From NCBI RefSeq assembly GCF_017349355.1, contig NZ_JAFMPM010000006.1:62001-126000 (forward strand): a stretch of DNA of 64,000 bases. The letters are read 5' to 3'. Position numbers and translations under genes: made by a program. Below the pieces are notes generated by a model. It worked only from the letters and a program-made list of their open reading frames with translations, did not search any database and was not told where the DNA came from. Position 1 is the stretch's first letter; every line of letters begins with the position of its first letter. Below are positions 57,949 to 62,587 of the stretch, piece after piece. The stretch is from Thiothrix fructosivorans (GTDB lineage Bacteria > Pseudomonadota > Gammaproteobacteria > Thiotrichales > Thiotrichaceae).

Positions 57949-58515
57949 TTAATGCTTACCACCCTTCCCGCCTTTAGCACCACCACCCATGCCAGCGTTG
58001 GCTGGGGCGACTGGCACTACAGTGAACTCCTCTAGTGACACGAGCTTGTTCGCATCGGTATCCAAACGCGCAAATTCCCACATGCCGCTGTTGCTGCCCT
58101 TGCTTTGCAATTCGGTGAATTCTGCTACACTCAGCACAGCATTAGCGTCTTTGTCTGCCAAATTGAATACGTTGGTCAGGTAAGTGGCTGCTGTACCCGT
58201 CGCAGTGGCGGTAAACTCAGCCAAGGTAATGTCGCTGGTTGTGTCGGTGTTAATCTTAGTAAACGCGGCGTTGACACGGCGGGTCTGGATAATGTTTTCC
58301 AAGCCTGCAAATTCAGCCAGTGTTAGGTCGTCGTTGGTATTGGTATTAGCGGTATTAAAATCAGCCGTTTTACCCGCAAGTGCTTCTTCAGCCGTCACCG
58401 TGCCGTTAGCGTCGGTGTCGTACTCAGCCATACCAGCATGAGCCGCCAGTACCAGAGAAGAGGCAGACAGCAGGACACCAGCAACCAGTAAAGACAGAGT
58501 AGTATTCGTTTTCAT
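57949..58515 (-). CDS. Secreted EF-hand calcium-binding protein
   Basis: A 188-residue exported protein with a signal peptide ending in LVLAAHA. Five EF-hand-type loops are visible: DTDANGTVTAEE, NTNTNDDLTLAEF, NTDTTSDITLAEF, DKDANAVLSVAEF and DTDANKLVSLEEF; the first, fourth and fifth have the best calcium ligands, while the second and third begin with Asn. A Gly/Lys tail (GMGGGAKGGKGGKH) closes it. GGAG eight bases ahead selects the ATG at 58515. Calcium buffering or sensing in the periplasm is inferred. Confidence 0.82.
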   Translation of the reverse strand: MKTNTTLSLLVAGVLLSASSLVLAAHAGMAEYDTDANGTVTAEEALAGKTADFNTANTNTNDDLTLAEFAGLENIIQTRRVNAAFTKINTDTTSDITLAEFTATATGTAATYLTNVFNLADKDANAVLSVAEFTELQSKGSNSGMWEFARLDTDANKLVSLEEFTVVPVAPANAGMGGGAKGGKGGKH

Positions 58516-58544
58516 CGTTATTGCTCCAAACATTTTTCAAAAGC

Positions 58545-58600
58545 CTTACCCAACACGGGTAAGTGTTAGTTGACCCAGCGCTGCAACGCTGGGTTTTTTT
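58545..58600 (+). terminator. Two hairpins, the second a strong plus-strand terminator
   Basis: CTTACCC/GGGTAAG (58545-58563, loop AACAC) is followed by CCCAGCG/CGCTGGG (58574-58593, loop CTGCAA) and seven T. The T-run is on the plus strand, but both flanking genes run on the minus strand. On the minus strand the same bases form two hairpins in the leader of the EF-hand mRNA, the CTTACCC one followed by only four T. Confidence 0.7.
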
Positions 58601-58627
58601 ATACCTCAACTCACGCTGAGGATTCGG

Positions 58628-59911
58628 TTAGTGACCCGCTTCACGCACCAGCGGAAGCAAGTCATCATTCGTATTCTTAGGGGGCATCAAAGGCAACATG
58701 CCGCCTTGCAAACGCAAAACCCGCAGCGTACCGTCGGCTTGCAACAACGCATCCACGGCCACCGTATCACCCACATTCAACAGCGCAAACGCCGTCGTGC
58801 TTTGATGATTGAGCGCATCGCGATCCCCCAGCAACATGCTGGCTTGATCGACCACAAAGGTACTACCCAATAAGCTGAAGGTTTTTTGCGCCGCATCTAT
58901 CGCCGTAATCGCCCCCTGCCAGCGCACCCCAGCCGTATCTTTCGCATGGCGCAACGCCACCCGCGTGGCTTGCAACACGCCACTGGCATCCATCGTACCC
59001 TCCACTTCCAAACCCGCATTCAACACAATGCCGCTGGCGGATAAGCCATCAAAACGCGTACTGCTGCTGGTCGCCACCGCTTGCCCATTGAGCGTGAAAC
59101 GGCTGCTTGATTCCAATGCTGTCACCACACCTTCCATTTCCAAGCGGGTATTTTGAGGATAATCCGTCCGCACGGGTTTCACGCGCACTTTCGTGGCGAT
59201 GACGCGCTGCCCTTGCAAAGCTGCACGGCTTTCCACCTCGACAAACACACCGTTGCTCAGGCTTGTTCCTGCTGTAAAACCTTCCAACCGCGCCGTGGCA
59301 TAATCCACCACCACATCGCCTAGTTGGAATGTGGTTTGCGCCGTTAATAAACCACTCACAGTCCCCGCCAGCTTCAACAACGCACCATCGTTGGCGTAGC
59401 GATCCCGCTGCAAGGTTACGCTGGAAGCCGTAATCATCCCCGCCGCATCACGCACGCCCGACACTTCCACCACATTGCCCCGCTGTAAGGCACTTAATTG
59501 CGTGAAACCGTGCAATACCGTCAAGTCATCCGTCGTGACCGTTTGCCCCATCACCGTCAGGCTGACGTTATCGCTGGAAAACGCCGTCACCTCACCCACC
59601 AATAAGCTCTCAAAGCTCACTTGCGTGGCGATGCTGGTACTGCCATCTTCTGCGGGTACGCCTGTCACCGTGACGAATTCGCCGACACTGAATGCCGCTT
59701 GCCCGCTCACCAACTCGCCCTCACGGTAAAACGTGGCTTGATCCACGTCATAGCGCACCCCATTGACGTAAATACTGCCAAAGCCGGTGATCCGCCCGCT
59801 GGAAATACCCGTGCCGCTCATGCCGCCTTCTACCAGCGTTAACGCACTTTCCACGCAACTGCTGAGTAATACCGCACTGAATACCGTTGCCAGCACGCGC
59901 TTAATCTTCAT
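58628..59911 (-). CDS. DUF5666 repeat lipoprotein
   Basis: A 427-residue putative lipoprotein: signal with lipobox LSSC, then repeated beta-rich DUF5666 modules of about 70 residues, each with a pattern like GRITGFGSIYVNG, VGEVTAFSSDNVSLTVMG, LAGTVSGLLTAQTTFQLG, MEGVVTALESSSRFTLNG and WQGAITAIDAAQKTFSLLG, paired with GEFVTVTGV- or GLEVEGTM-type strands. These are probably OB-like barrels in the periplasm; function unknown. The ATG at 59911 overlaps the end of the DUF6502 gene by 11 bases, so the two are coupled, as is common for this gene pair. Confidence 0.8.
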   Translation of the reverse strand: MKIKRVLATVFSAVLLSSCVESALTLVEGGMSGTGISSGRITGFGSIYVNGVRYDVDQATFYREGELVSGQAAFSVGEFVTVTGVPAEDGSTSIATQVSFESLLVGEVTAFSSDNVSLTVMGQTVTTDDLTVLHGFTQLSALQRGNVVEVSGVRDAAGMITASSVTLQRDRYANDGALLKLAGTVSGLLTAQTTFQLGDVVVDYATARLEGFTAGTSLSNGVFVEVESRAALQGQRVIATKVRVKPVRTDYPQNTRLEMEGVVTALESSSRFTLNGQAVATSSSTRFDGLSASGIVLNAGLEVEGTMDASGVLQATRVALRHAKDTAGVRWQGAITAIDAAQKTFSLLGSTFVVDQASMLLGDRDALNHQSTTAFALLNVGDTVAVDALLQADGTLRVLRLQGGMLPLMPPKNTNDDLLPLVREAGH

Positions 59912-60731
59912 GTTTCGCATCCTTTTCCACATCCACGGGCTGCTCGAAATAATAAATACCGACACCCGCCTGCATTCGTCCTGTGCCTTTTATATCGGCA
60001 TTGCTGTCACGGTCATGGCGGTATAACCACGCATTAAAACGCAGCAACAATTGTTGGGAATCGTGTTGCACAAATTCGCGGAATTCGGGCAAGACTTCGA
60101 TAGGCAAATTGTCGTAACTGACCTTGCGCTGATACCGCAGGTCTTGGGGGTTACGACTGGTTAAGTTGTGGTCGATGGTGCTAATCAACAGCGGCACATC
60201 CAACCCTAGCAACGCGACTTTTTCGCCCTCATCGCCTTGCGGAAGGTAGACCTGACTAAGCAATTCCACGCTGCTGCCGTCCAACGTTTCGCGCACCACC
60301 TGAATACGCTTCATTTCTTCGAGCATCGCAAAATTCGACATATCACCGCTGTAACGCTGCACCAGCCGCTCGAAACTGCCCTGCTCCCCCCGAAACGGCA
60401 AAATCGCTGGTTGACCCGTGCTCGCATCCACGAATTCAGCATCATGTAACCAACCCGTCAACACGCGCACGCCACGGTTATAACGCTGGCTGGTTTCGGT
60501 CGCTTCACGTTCGCGCAATACTGCCACGTCTTTGCGGGTTAAGCCGGTAATCGCCGCCACGCGTGAAGTCGTCACGCGTTCACCGCCACGGGCTAGCTCT
60601 TGTTCGACCACATCGACATACGCTTGCTTGACCAATTGAGTGAAATCGCCAAGGGCGACCCCTTTGCGGTACAGAATCCGCATCAAGGTTTTGATGATGC
60701 GGTAAAAAGCGAGGCGTAGTGTTTTGTCCAT
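59901..60731 (-). CDS. DUF6502 protein with a probable helix-turn-helix
   Basis: A 276-residue cytoplasmic protein of the DUF6502 type. The N-terminus RIIKTLMRILYRKGVALGDFTQLVKQAYVDV precedes TTSRVAAITGLTRKDVAVLRERE (key residues SRVAAITGL-R-DV), which reads as a helix-turn-helix; then VLTGWLHDAEFVDASTGQP and FERLVQRYSGDMSNFAMLEEMKR, as in other family members. A DNA-binding role is inferred. Start codons at 60731 and 60755 both lie inside a 30-base perfect palindrome, a possible autoregulatory site. It is coupled to the DUF5666 gene. Confidence 0.75.
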   Translation of the reverse strand: MDKTLRLAFYRIIKTLMRILYRKGVALGDFTQLVKQAYVDVVEQELARGGERVTTSRVAAITGLTRKDVAVLREREATETSQRYNRGVRVLTGWLHDAEFVDASTGQPAILPFRGEQGSFERLVQRYSGDMSNFAMLEEMKRIQVVRETLDGSSVELLSQVYLPQGDEGEKVALLGLDVPLLISTIDHNLTSRNPQDLRYQRKVSYDNLPIEVLPEFREFVQHDSQQLLLRFNAWLYRHDRDSNADIKGTGRMQAGVGIYYFEQPVDVEKDAKHED

Positions 60732-60757
60732 GAATGGGAATTTATTCCCATTCATGG
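60728..60757. promoter_or_regulatory. 30-bp perfect palindrome over the DUF6502 start
   Basis: Arms of 14 bases (CCATGAATGGGAAT and its exact complement) around a TT centre. Both candidate start codons of the DUF6502 gene are in it. A TTGACT -35-like box on the minus strand (60763-60768) lies just outside, so the palindrome would cover the spacer and -10 region. This fits an operator; as RNA it would hide the start codon. Confidence 0.75.
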
Positions 60758-60793: not shown

Positions 60794-61087
60794 TTAGATG
60801 AACGATGATGAGGTTTCAGACAAAATCGGGCGATAACCTTCCGGCCAAACCGTGCCACACGCACGCTGAGTGGATTGGGAATAAATCGCCAATAAGTCCG
60901 GTGTGGTGGTTTTCAAGGCCGCCGCGACGGCTATCAGGGTGGAAAGTTTAGCCTCCTTGATGTCGGCGACCATCAGCTTATGCCAGGTTTGCCGGGAAAT
61001 ACCGGAATACTCGGCGGCTTCTTTTACACTTAATCCCAAGACTTTTGTGCGAGACTGCATATACTGCGCCAAATCCAATGCTGACAT
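60794..61087 (-). CDS. Short XRE-type HTH protein, paralogue of the XRE-FW protein
   Basis: A 97-residue protein with an XRE-like helix-turn-helix: GLSVKEAAEYSGISRQTWHKLM at about 18-39. In my alignment 38 of its first 60 residues are identical to the start of the protein encoded at 61979-62587, so the two arose by duplication. The 35-residue tail (CGTVWPEGYRPIL) is unrelated to the paralogue and no ligand domain is present. GAGGGG precedes the ATG at 61087. A near-perfect inverted repeat lies 61-85 bases upstream of the start. Confidence 0.8.
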   Translation of the reverse strand: MSALDLAQYMQSRTKVLGLSVKEAAEYSGISRQTWHKLMVADIKEAKLSTLIAVAAALKTTTPDLLAIYSQSTQRACGTVWPEGYRPILSETSSSFI

Positions 61088-61147: not shown

Positions 61148-61172
61148 TCAAGGTGGAAATTTCCACCCTTGA
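61148..61172. promoter_or_regulatory. Inverted repeat upstream of the short XRE gene
   Basis: TCAAGGTGGAAA is followed directly by its complement TTTCCACCTTGA with one extra C in the right arm; the inner 16 bases (GGTGGAAATTTCCACC) are a perfect palindrome. It lies 61-85 bases upstream of the short XRE gene and partly overlaps a TTGTCA box on the minus strand. An operator for an HTH protein encoded here is likely (inference). Confidence 0.65.
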
Positions 61173-61193: not shown

Positions 61194-61982
61194 TTAGCGC
61201 TGATCCAACAACTGGAGCAAACCGAGGTAATACAGCAACTGGGCTTTGTTGATGCTTCCAAACTTTTTCAGGATACTTTCGAGCAATTTTTCACCGTATT
61301 TCTGAGAAATACCCGGCAAATATTTCGGCAAGATTTTCATCGGCAAACCCGTGATCAGAAAAGGCAAAAGCTGGCGCTCTTTCACGCTAAGCTGTTCCAG
61401 CAATGCTGCTAGAAAAAAGGCGCGTAAGGCGGGCTTACTCATGACATGCTCATGAAAAATCTGCGTACAACACATCAAAGTCGACAAGTTCGTCGCTAGC
61501 AGCCGTTGGTAAAGCGCGTCTTTTTCGGCACTGATAATACTCGCACCGCCAAAACCCGCCGCTCCCACCAGCGGTAACGATAAACCATGTTTAATGCCAT
61601 AGTCTTGCTCAGCAGTAATCACAACATGACGTTCTGGAGCAGTGGTCTCGGGTTTTCTAGCTTCTACCCACCAGTCAATGACGTGGGTTTCTCCTTGGGT
61701 TATTTTTTTGATAGTAAAATCATGCTTCTCAAACCCTGCCTCTTGATAGTGTTTGAGAAAATGCGGATTATAAGTATCTGAGGTAATAAACAACGGAGCG
61801 AGTGGCAGCCCTGACTGTAAATGTAACTGAGGGATGAAGGTGTATAAAACACCCTCAAACCCTAGAGACTGCACACACCGTGTATAAACGGCGAAGGCTT
61901 CATCAAACGTATTAGCTTGAAACAACGCGGCTACAAAGTCCAGCGGGTTAAAAACACCCGGTGCAGATAGTAGCGGTTTCAC
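61194..61982 (-). CDS. LuxR-type regulator with autoinducer-binding-like domain (LuxR solo)
   Basis: A 262-residue protein. Residues 20-160 resemble the autoinducer-binding domain: LGFEGVLYTFIPQ, TYNPHFLKHYQEAGFEKHDF, HVIDWW and HGLSLPLVGAAGFGGASIIS, with Phe where LuxR proteins have the first ligand Trp. Residues 195-255 read as a divergent GerE helix-turn-helix (LSVKERQLLPFLITG, PGIS, ILKKFGSINKAQLLYYL). The GTG start at 61982 overlaps the XRE-FW stop (GTGA), so synthesis is coupled; the frame is open upstream but overlaps that gene. No luxI gene is in the window. Confidence 0.6.
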   Translation of the reverse strand: MKPLLSAPGVFNPLDFVAALFQANTFDEAFAVYTRCVQSLGFEGVLYTFIPQLHLQSGLPLAPLFITSDTYNPHFLKHYQEAGFEKHDFTIKKITQGETHVIDWWVEARKPETTAPERHVVITAEQDYGIKHGLSLPLVGAAGFGGASIISAEKDALYQRLLATNLSTLMCCTQIFHEHVMSKPALRAFFLAALLEQLSVKERQLLPFLITGLPMKILPKYLPGISQKYGEKLLESILKKFGSINKAQLLYYLGLLQLLDQR

Positions 61983-62587
61983 GGCTTTAGCACAGTCACC
62001 ATACAGTACAAGCCCGCCTGCCGTGGAAACACAATATCCCCTGCCGCATTCACGCATTTCCATTGCGAAATAGCGTTACACGCCAACGTAGGCGCACGCA
62101 ATTGCACGCTCAACTGTACGTGTTTCCCAGACGGCGTATCGGGAATCGCAATGCTATTATCCACAGGCTGTAAAGGTGATGTACCCGGAACATCCATACA
62201 CTGCAAACGCCAACCCACCCACGATTCCGTGCCGACATTAGCGATTTCCCATGTTTTTTCAAACACTTCACCGGCACGCACCGTACTATTATCCGGGTAG
62301 GTCACATCCGCGATAAACCCCGAAACAAAACGGGTGTCACCACTGCGATGCGCCGCTTGGGTCACTTCGCGTCCATTAAAAAAGATACGCAACATACTCA
62401 GTGGATGCGTTTCCAACGTATCCGCTACCTGTATCAAGGTGGATAAACGCGCTTCACCAATCTCGGCACGCAGCAATTTATGCCATGTTTGCCGTGAAAT
62501 TCCCGAACGTTTTGCCGCTTCAGTAGTGGTCAAACGCAACGCGCGTAAACGTAAACGCAGATATTCTGCTAAGTCCAATGCGGACAT
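61979..62587 (-). CDS. XRE HTH fused to a four-tryptophan (FW, NBR1-like) Ig domain
   Basis: A 202-residue soluble protein. Residues 1-60 are an XRE-type helix-turn-helix (LTTTEAAKRSGISRQTWHKLL). Residues 85-200 match the FW/NBR1 central domain: AGEVFEKTWEIANVGTESW, VGWRLQC, a variable loop, PDTPSGKHVQLSVQLRAP and ISQWKCVN, with the four diagnostic tryptophans at 113, 123, 126 and 176. In eukaryotes this domain binds protein cargo; in bacteria its ligand is unknown. The ATG at 62587 is placed ten bases after AGGGG. The LuxR-like gene is coupled to its stop. Confidence 0.78.
   Translation of the reverse strand: MSALDLAEYLRLRLRALRLTTTEAAKRSGISRQTWHKLLRAEIGEARLSTLIQVADTLETHPLSMLRIFFNGREVTQAAHRSGDTRFVSGFIADVTYPDNSTVRAGEVFEKTWEIANVGTESWVGWRLQCMDVPGTSPLQPVDNSIAIPDTPSGKHVQLSVQLRAPTLACNAISQWKCVNAAGDIVFPRQAGLYCMVTVLKP

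What the first reader, a model, noticed from the sequence alone, without database searches (positions are those of the whole stretch)
61194..62587. XRE-HTH / four-tryptophan Ig fusion translationally coupled to a LuxR-type solo
A DNA-binding domain is joined to an FW (NBR1-like) Ig domain, a fold best known from eukaryotic autophagy cargo receptors, with all four tryptophans in place (113, 123, 126, 176). Its stop codon shares GTGA with a LuxR-like protein whose ligand pocket and helix-turn-helix are both divergent, and no luxI is near. A one-to-one coupled pair of an HTH-Ig protein and a ligand-sensing protein suggests a two-part sensor-regulator not described to my knowledge.
Basis: partly seen in the sequence, partly recalled or inferred. 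Interest (0 to 1): 0.8.

Follow-up and report, generated by a model that had tools for sequence, protein, structure and literature searches.

The report
Regulator pair from acyl-amino-acid signalling

Summary
The domain calls hold: XRE-HTH plus FW (PF16158, 52 bits), coupled by GTGA to a LuxR-like protein (PF03472, 54 bits; AlphaFold pLDDT 88). XRE-FW proteins were named in 2012, and one canonical tryptophan is probably a tyrosine here.

The pair is not one-to-one. In 12 genus genomes with XRE-FW, 5 have the coupled LuxR, 3 another LuxR nearby, 4 none; only the window's coupled LuxR is clearly intact.

The main result is what this LuxR family goes with. Of 19 FeeM-type N-acyl amino acid synthase loci in the family, 17 have a methyltransferase beside them and 16 a LuxR within 5 kb. 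Conversely, 37 of 53 LuxR places have no FeeM nearby. In two genomes XRE-FW, LuxR, FeeM and methyltransferase follow each other; the window lacks the last two. All 45 LuxRs aligned keep the amide-binding Asp and none the lactone-binding Trp. The window's genome has no LuxI match and has an intact FeeM-methyltransferase-LuxR module elsewhere, behind a palindrome found once in that genome.

I read the pair as a lineage-specific offshoot of N-acyl-amino-acid (perhaps methyl ester) signalling.

The parts
61979..62587 (-). XRE-FW protein (P0001, 202 aa)
   Evidence: HTH_31 and PF16158 over cut-off; best matches 50-79% identical in 11 other genus genomes
62405..62572 (-). XRE helix-turn-helix of P0001 (residues 6-61); the stretch GISRQTWHKL (residues 29-38) is the same in P0003
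61994..62302 (-). FW (NBR1-like Ig) domain of P0001 (residues 96-198 by Pfam). Residues aligned with the N-terminus-binding pocket of CtNbr1: F91, D94, D99, W113, L193 identical; W763 falls on Y194
   Evidence: the alignment beyond residue 187 rests alone and is weak; pocket residues from PMC9233695
61979..61982 (-). GTGA overlap: GTG start of the LuxR gene and TGA stop of the XRE-FW gene
   Evidence: same overlap in 5 of 5 pair genomes
61194..61982 (-). LuxR-type protein (P0002, 262 aa)
61446..61904 (-). Ligand-binding domain of P0002 (PF03472, residues 27-179). TraR-equivalent Y61, D70, W85 kept (Y79, D88, W104); W57 is F75, P71 is F89
61218..61391 (-). Divergent GerE-like helix-turn-helix of P0002 (about residues 198-255)
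   Evidence: no Pfam GerE match; aligned to RhlR/TraR/LasR by profile and in model comparison
61152..61167 (.). Perfect 16-bp palindrome GGTGGAAATTTCCACC, candidate XRE operator, upstream of P0003 and just after the LuxR gene
   Evidence: the only exact copy in the window's genome; same or variant dyad before the HTH-only gene in 8 of 9 loci aligned (not in G048; weakest in G040 and G045)
60794..61087 (-). HTH-only paralogue (P0003, 97 aa); in G054 and G056 FeeM and the methyltransferase lie between the LuxR gene and this gene
   Evidence: its best Pfam HTH matches are just under their cut-offs

Best explanation
The pair is a lineage-specific form of a quorum-sensing-like cassette that uses an N-acyl amino acid in place of an acyl-homoserine lactone. 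In the full cassette, FeeM joins a fatty acyl chain to an amino acid, the SAM methyltransferase modifies the product (most simply by making a methyl ester), and the LuxR protein binds it and controls transcription. In the lineage of the window, an XRE-FW regulator stands at the head of the operon and is translationally coupled to the LuxR, so that regulator and receptor are made together. In the window's genome FeeM and the methyltransferase are missing from this locus. P0002 would then listen to a signal made by the intact module elsewhere on the same contig (C6, about 649 kb) or by neighbouring cells. XRE-FW, through its FW pocket, would bring a partner protein to promoters that carry its XRE site.

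Shown by sequence: the domains, the overlap, the linkage, the pocket signature, the palindromes, and the absence of FeeM and methyltransferase here. Inferred: the chemistry of the signal, the binding sites of LuxR and XRE, the direction of regulation, any contact between XRE-FW and LuxR, and that the window lineage lost the two genes rather than never had them.
For: Linkage: 16 of 19 FeeM loci in 63 family genomes have a LuxR within 5 kb (about 0.09 expected if placed at random), 10 of 29 FW places lie near LuxR or FeeM (expected 0.13), and 11 of 35 HTH-only places do (expected 0.18) (related genomes are not independent; 53 of the 60 LuxR rows used, 7 fragment rows dropped). Methyltransferase beside FeeM in 17 of 19. 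Domains, two loci each: FeeM PF21926 54 and 63 bits (cut-off 27), methyltransferase PF13489 51 and 64 bits. The FeeM profile finds the FeeM structure 2g0b.

Synteny: G054 and G056 have XRE-FW, LuxR, FeeM, methyltransferase, a gene on the other strand, HTH, then the DUF6502, DUF5666 and EF-hand clusters; the window has the same order without FeeM, methyltransferase and that opposite gene. The trio also occurs outside the family in a Granulosicoccaceae MAG (L211) and, with the LuxR about 4 kb from FeeM, in a Bugula symbiont (L212), and in two MAGs of unknown family (L205, L210).

Tree: the five XRE-FW-paired LuxRs group with those of G036 and G037 (99/94). In those two genomes an FW-only gene sits beside FeeM, and their FeeMs group with FeeM of G054 and G056 (84/81).

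Pocket: over 45 LuxRs, TraR D70 is D in 45 and Y61 is Y in 45, but W57 is W in 0 (F in 37) and P71 is P in 0. In TraR, D70 holds the amide nitrogen and W57 the lactone carbonyl (PMC8546723, passages). No LuxI match in the window's genome. The own-genome FeeM has a palindrome CCAAGCGCTTGG that occurs once in 4.36 Mb, with compensated variants before FeeM in G053, G016 and G026.
Against: Only 16 of 53 LuxR places in the family have FeeM within 5 kb, and 19 of the 35 genomes with LuxR have no FeeM of this type. The window locus has neither FeeM nor methyltransferase, and no CCAAGnnCTTGG site with up to 1 mismatch. FW-lineage FeeM leaders (G054, G036, G037; G056) also lack the palindrome. Over all 63 genomes the exact palindrome is no commoner than its reversed control (23 against 21 sites), and 17 of the 23 sites are not before FeeM. 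The pair's LuxR is cut or split in 3 of the other 4 genomes and frameshifted in the fourth, a MAG, so the circuit may be dying. The FW-only proteins of G036/G037 are not the closest relatives of the genus XRE-FW. Other FeeM-like genes in the family have no LuxR nearby (G047, G005, G006). [quoted passage not shown] passages). No experiment ties any of these genes to a signal.
Confidence: 0.5

Rival explanations
1. XRE-FW is a self-sufficient regulator and the coupled LuxR is a passenger that is being lost: the signalling cassette came to lie behind XRE-FW once and is now decaying, with the window at an intermediate stage.
For: In 12 genus genomes the best XRE-FW match is near no LuxR in 4 and near another LuxR type in 3, and five second copies have none. 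In 4 of 5 pair genomes the LuxR is interrupted, cut or frameshifted. XRE-FW differs less between genomes than LuxR.
Against: P0002 is full length, holds the residues that are invariant or nearly so in the family, gives a confident model and has fewer replacement than silent differences per site (silent sites saturated). The GTGA overlap is kept in 5 of 5. Even with FeeM gone here, the receptor frame has stayed open.
Confidence: 0.28
2. One reading: XRE-FW and LuxR form a dedicated two-protein complex in which ligand binding by LuxR is passed to the XRE DNA-binding domain through the FW domain.
For: Coupled expression through GTGA in 5 of 5 pair genomes. An FW domain binds a protein N-terminus in CtNbr1 and most of that pocket is kept in P0001. 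Other LuxR receptors are controlled by protein partners (PMC13043044, start of abstract in the listing).
Against: In 4 of 12 genus genomes XRE-FW has no LuxR nearby, and the family has 53 LuxR places against 29 FW places. No interaction evidence.
Confidence: 0.12
3. The FeeM-methyltransferase product is not a signal but a lipid or surfactant, and the LuxR senses it only to control its own production.
For: N-acyl amino acids include biosurfactants and membrane lipids (titles and abstract starts in the listing).
Against: The receptor is LuxR-type, and XRE regulators lie near LuxR or FeeM at 11 of 35 HTH-only places, with LuxRs from several clades. LuxR places outnumber FeeM loci (53 against 19), which fits listening better than pure product feedback.
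Confidence: 0.2
4. P0002 is an ordinary AHL-eavesdropping LuxR solo.
For: Autoind_bind fold, nearest solved relatives are AHL receptors; 37 of 53 LuxR places have no FeeM nearby; AHL-responsive solos are known (PMC8546723, passages).
Against: The lactone-contacting Trp is lost in 45 of 45 family members aligned and P71 in 45 of 45. Where a synthase is linked it is FeeM, and a clear LuxI was found in 1 of 63 genomes.
Confidence: 0.07

Closest known systems
XRE-FW proteins (Marchbank et al. 2012, PMC3357945)
   Same: XRE-family HTH followed by a C-terminal FW domain in a bacterial protein.
   Different: Translationally coupled to a LuxR-type receptor and, in two relatives, followed by FeeM and a methyltransferase. 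The passages read mention no such partner. The fourth canonical Trp is probably Tyr.
LuxI/LuxR quorum sensing (TraR, LasR, QscR, RhlR)
   Same: Two-domain receptor fold with the amide-binding Asp. The linked synthase is an acyltransferase structurally close to AHL synthases (FeeM, PMC9654057, passages). A dyad lies before the synthase gene in 9 of 22 leaders.
   Different: Synthase is FeeM-type with a methyltransferase beside it. The lactone-binding Trp and Pro71 are gone. No LuxI match in the window's genome. The dyad CCAAGnnCTTGG differs from the lux box as I recall it.
LuxR solos with non-AHL ligands (fluorescent pseudomonad subgroups, PMC8546723)
   Same: LuxR without LuxI, substitutions at W57 and other pocket positions.
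   Different: In 16 of 53 places a candidate synthase (FeeM) lies within 5 kb, so part of this family is not truly solo; the window's copy is solo at its own locus.
[quoted passage not shown] described there as AHL analogues.
   Different: Their synthase genes were reported as not found, and NAMEs did not act on AHL reporters. Whether the present cassette makes NAMEs is untested; the two methyltransferases scanned match no NCBIfam model above its cut-off.

Membership tests
XRE-FW proteins | N-terminal XRE-type HTH | tested here: met
   HTH_31 28.1 bits, cut-off 27; HTH_26 22.3 bits, cut-off 22
XRE-FW proteins | C-terminal FW domain (PF16158) | tested here: met
   52.3 bits, cut-off 28; profile matches NBR1 4ole and ILRUN 6vhi
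FW domain | Four conserved tryptophans | tested here: not met
   W113, W123, W176 fall on tryptophans of NBR1/ILRUN/CtNbr1; the pocket W763 of CtNbr1 falls on Y194 in a weak alignment. FW membership rests on the profile score, not on this count.
LuxR-type receptors | Autoinducer-binding domain PF03472 | tested here: met
   54 bits, cut-off 23; Foldseek to LasR, QscR, TraR
LuxR-type receptors | GerE helix-turn-helix PF00196 | tested here: inconclusive
   No Pfam match; aligned through the HTH of RhlR, TraR, LasR by profile and in long Foldseek alignments
AHL-responsive LuxR (canonical quorum sensing) | Conserved pocket residues W57, Y61, D70, P71, W85 (TraR numbering) | tested here: not met
   Y79, D88, W104 kept; W57 is F75 and P71 is F89; 0 of 45 family members keep W57 or P71
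AHL-responsive LuxR (canonical quorum sensing) | Cognate LuxI synthase | tested here: not met
   PF00765: no match in the window's genome; 2 of 63 family genomes over the cut-off (G006 clear, G049 marginal), 5 more below it
FeeM-methyltransferase-LuxR cassette (this report) | FeeM and methyltransferase beside the LuxR gene | tested here: not met
   Absent at the window locus; present in the syntenic loci of G054 and G056 (FeeM of G056 carries a stop) and at another locus of the window's own genome
FeeM-methyltransferase-LuxR cassette (this report) | LuxR belongs to the cassette's receptor family by sequence and tree | tested here: met
   Clade 99/94 with the receptors of G054, G056, G036, G037
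FeeM-methyltransferase-LuxR cassette (this report) | Receptor binds an N-acyl amino acid or its ester | not testable with these tools
   Only the pocket signature was examined

The most novel reading that the evidence does not exclude
Thiothrix and scattered other gammaproteobacteria have a quorum-sensing system separate from AHL signalling: FeeM and a methyltransferase make an N-acyl amino acid methyl ester, and a dedicated LuxR clade that has lost the lactone contact but kept the amide contact reads it. One lineage has added a co-translated XRE-FW regulator whose Ig-like FW domain, best known from an autophagy receptor, acts as a protein-recruiting arm of a bacterial transcription factor.
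Probability: 0.37. Interest if true: 0.8.

Novelty: new variant of a known kind. Interest (0 to 1): 0.6.

Why it matters
[quoted passage not shown] It turns part of a group of 'LuxR solos' into receptors with a partner synthase, and it gives a bacterial setting in which the function of an FW domain can be tested. The LuxR pocket signature (Asp70 kept, Trp57 lost) and the dyad before FeeM make clear predictions. For filamentous Thiothrix it would be a route to its cell-to-cell signalling; no AHL synthase profile match was found in the window's genome.

Tried and rejected
Defence or toxin-antitoxin reading: PADLOC gave only short HTH-type matches (16.8 and 21.7 bits best), PHROGs mostly repressor-type HTHs. 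Rejected as HTH similarity. HipA-type genes sit beside XRE-FW in some relatives but not in the window.

FW-only genes of G036/G037 as direct relatives of the genus XRE-FW: not supported. They group with an FW of G031 (89/90), so the FW link in that genus may be independent.

The FeeM palindrome as operator of the window pair: no site with up to 1 mismatch of CCAAGnnCTTGG, and three two-mismatch sites of the full palindrome against 3.8 expected. Rejected for this locus.

A wide spread of this FeeM subfamily: weak matches in 10 of 369 class genomes besides two of the family, and in 6 of 398 phylum genomes besides the window's. Surroundings in 9 of these 16 genomes were read and none shows a LuxR match. 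Rejected as a general gammaproteobacterial module; the other 7 were not read.

XRE-FW with LuxR across the class: PF16158 is in 15 of 369 genomes, the window's included. Of the other 14, one (G173) shows the XRE-FW architecture by our HMMs, with no LuxR or FeeM beside it. The neighbours of the other 13 were not examined for LuxR.

dN/dS: silent sites are saturated, so only 'fewer replacement than silent differences per site' can be said.

Literature searches: FeeM with LuxR, XRE-FW, Thiothrix quorum sensing. No listing shown described the FeeM-methyltransferase-LuxR trio; searches matched more papers than were listed. Eight papers were seen in passages (PMC9582228, PMC3357945, PMC11580390, PMC9654057, PMC7293339, PMC6296433, PMC9233695, PMC8546723) and none in full. 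PMC13043044 and the lipid papers were seen only as listings.

Full report
What is at the coordinates. The minus strand holds two genes. P0001 (62587..61979, 202 aa) has an XRE helix-turn-helix and an FW domain, both over Pfam's cut-offs (28.1 against 27 bits; 52.3 against 28 bits). P0002 (61982..61194, 262 aa, GTG start) has an autoinducer-binding domain (54 bits, cut-off 23). They share GTGA, and in 5 of 5 genomes with this pair the overlap is again GTGA. A third gene, P0003 (61087..60794), is the same kind of XRE helix-turn-helix without FW; its Pfam HTH matches are just under their cut-offs. The stretch GISRQTWHKL, which covers the likely recognition helix, is identical in P0001 and P0003.

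Correction on the tryptophans. In CtNbr1 the FW pocket that holds a protein N-terminus is made of F651, D654, D658, W672, L762 and W763 (PMC9233695, passages). Aligned with it, P0001 has F91, D94, D99, W113, L193 and Y194. The profile alignment supports the register up to about residue 187; the last two residues rest on one weak single-sequence alignment. W126 falls on no tryptophan of the solved FW domains. The FW assignment rests on the profile, and binding of a protein N-terminus is inference.

The LuxR protein. A model built from P0002 and 14 relatives has mean pLDDT 88. Foldseek places it with QscR, LasR, RhlR, SdiA and TraR: ligand domains alone superpose at 2.4-3.4 A, while alignments of about 250 columns have rmsd of roughly 6-16 A, so the arrangement of the two domains differs. 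In 45 family members (of 53 places counted; 4 of the 45 are truncated or partial), the TraR-equivalent residues are: Y61 45 of 45, D70 45 of 45, W85 39 of 45, W57 0 of 45 (37 Phe, 5 Tyr), P71 0 of 45 (33 Phe) (register from the profile alignment to TraR). In TraR-like receptors W57 holds the lactone carbonyl and D70 the amide nitrogen (PMC8546723, passages). So the whole family looks made for an N-acylated amine that is not a lactone. This is inference from residues, not a binding result.

The partners. A search of 63 genomes of the taxonomic family with P0002 found matches in 35, and with P0001 in 26. Gene maps showed two recurring neighbours of the LuxR genes: a FeeM-type N-acyl amino acid synthase (PF21926, 54 and 63 bits in two loci, cut-off 27) and a class I SAM methyltransferase (PF13489, 51 and 64 bits). 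FeeM of this type is at 19 places in 16 of 63 genomes; 17 of 19 have the methyltransferase beside it and 16 of 19 have LuxR within 5 kb, against about 0.09 expected. Against this, only 16 of 53 LuxR places have FeeM nearby. The broader Pfam search finds other FeeM-like genes, some of them weak, and the surroundings of three such genomes that were read (G047, G005, G006) show no LuxR.

The window in that light. In G054 and G056 the order is XRE-FW, LuxR, FeeM, methyltransferase, one gene on the other strand, HTH, and the DUF6502, DUF5666 and EF-hand clusters. The window has XRE-FW, LuxR, HTH, DUF6502, DUF5666, EF-hand (clusters, domains). The five paired LuxRs form a clade with those of G036 and G037 (99/94). 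In G036 and G037 an FW-only gene stands beside FeeM, and their FeeMs group with those of G054 and G056 (84/81). This supports a cassette shared by the ancestor of these lineages, with FeeM and methyltransferase absent from the window locus. Loss is the simpler reading but gain in the others is not excluded. The FW-only proteins themselves are not sisters of the genus XRE-FW.

How stable the pair is. A full XRE-FW (50% identity or more to P0001) is in 12 of the 16 genus genomes. Its best copy has the coupled LuxR in 5, a LuxR of another clade within 5 kb in 3 (G059, G060, G061) and none nearby in 4 (G051, G052, G053, G057). Five genomes (G051, G052, G059, G060, G061) have a second copy, 59-60% identical, near no LuxR or FeeM, so 8 of 17 such places are linked. 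Among the 5 coupled ones, G054's LuxR is split by 1,316 bp that encode a transposase-like frame, G049's is cut near its HTH with a transposase-like gene next to it, G055's ends at the same place and G056's C-terminus is frameshifted. Calling those frames transposase-like is my recognition, not a search result. Only the window's copy is clearly intact.

The window's own signalling genes. The window's genome has no LuxI profile match and has one intact FeeM, methyltransferase, LuxR module on the same contig (C6, FeeM at 649430-649951). Before that FeeM stands a perfect palindrome, CCAAGCGCTTGG, the only copy in its 4.36 Mb; the reversed control pattern also occurs once. In G045, G057 and G058 the sole copy is again before FeeM, and in G040 two of three copies are, so in these five genomes 6 of 7 sites are before FeeM. 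Over all 63 genomes there are 23 sites against 21 of the control, and the other 16 sites, in 13 further genomes, are not before a FeeM of this type. G016, G053 and G026 have different but again perfectly symmetric sequences at the same place. In all, 9 of 22 FeeM leaders (18 from the family, 4 from named loci; the damaged G056 left out) have a gapless palindrome of 12 bp or more, starting 40-50 nt before the start codon, against a shuffle mean of 0.55 and maximum of 4. It lies close to the start codon, so activation, repression and effects on the leader are all open. The FW-lineage FeeM genes lack it.

The XRE side. A 16-bp palindrome, GGTGGAAATTTCCACC, lies before P0003 at 61152-61167. It is the only exact copy in the window's genome, and the same or a variant dyad precedes the HTH-only gene in 8 of the 9 loci aligned, not in G048. 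With up to two mismatches such sites are commoner than the reversed control in 16 of 20 genomes, not in G040, G045, G046 or G050; the places of the last genomes were not listed, and many sites lie elsewhere in the genomes. Its role as XRE operator is inference.

Beyond the family. A scan of named genomes with seven LuxRs returned 16 loci, 11 of which have FeeM in the stretch held. These include Thiothrix eikelboomii, an uncultured Granulosicoccaceae MAG, a symbiont of Bugula neritina (LuxR about 4 kb from FeeM) and MAGs titled only Gammaproteobacteria. In even samples of 369 class and 398 phylum genomes the FeeM subfamily is otherwise rare and weak.

Verdict. XRE-FW is a known architecture; the coupling to this LuxR is a lineage-specific arrangement. 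The larger finding is that FeeM of this type, where it occurs in the family, lies beside a methyltransferase and a LuxR in 16 of 19 places. The best explanation is N-acyl-amino-acid signalling, of which the window keeps receptor and co-regulator at this place and synthase elsewhere. The trio was not described in any listing I saw, though most subscription papers are outside that library.

Noticed in passing
L102, L105, L107, L108, L109, L116, L117 (FeeM leaders): Between the palindrome and the FeeM start codon a hairpin pairs GG(G)ATC..CCT with AGG..GATCC and buries the Shine-Dalgarno stretch; G016 and G026 change both sides together. No covariation test was run. Possible translational control of FeeM.
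   Followed up: partly
61152-61167 and genus genomes: Sites like GGTGGAAATTTCCACC (up to 2 mismatches) are more frequent than the reversed control in 15 of 16 genus genomes, up to 16 in G060. This may reflect base composition or a wider XRE regulon.
   Followed up: partly
57949-60755 (-): DUF6502, DUF5666 and EF-hand genes follow P0003 in the window; their sequence clusters follow in the same order in G054 and G056.
   Followed up: no
L067:4170-5710, also L064, L065, L066, L070: A HipA gene lies near XRE-FW on the other strand in several relatives (Pfam for L067 with its HTH partner; the same sequence cluster in the others) but not in the window.
   Followed up: no
G000:C7:38195-38827 (L104): A second XRE-FW protein in the window's genome (61.7 bits to PF16158) with no LuxR or FeeM in the 12 kb held.
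   Followed up: partly
L068, L069, L070, L130, L103: A separate LuxR clade has Tyr in place of Trp85 and mostly Ile at P71, and in three genomes lies within 5 kb of the same XRE-FW orthologue. Possibly ligand-free.
   Followed up: no
G047:C111 (L231): Three FeeM-like genes in tandem (91-111 bits), with no LuxR on the 5.3-kb contig.
   Followed up: no
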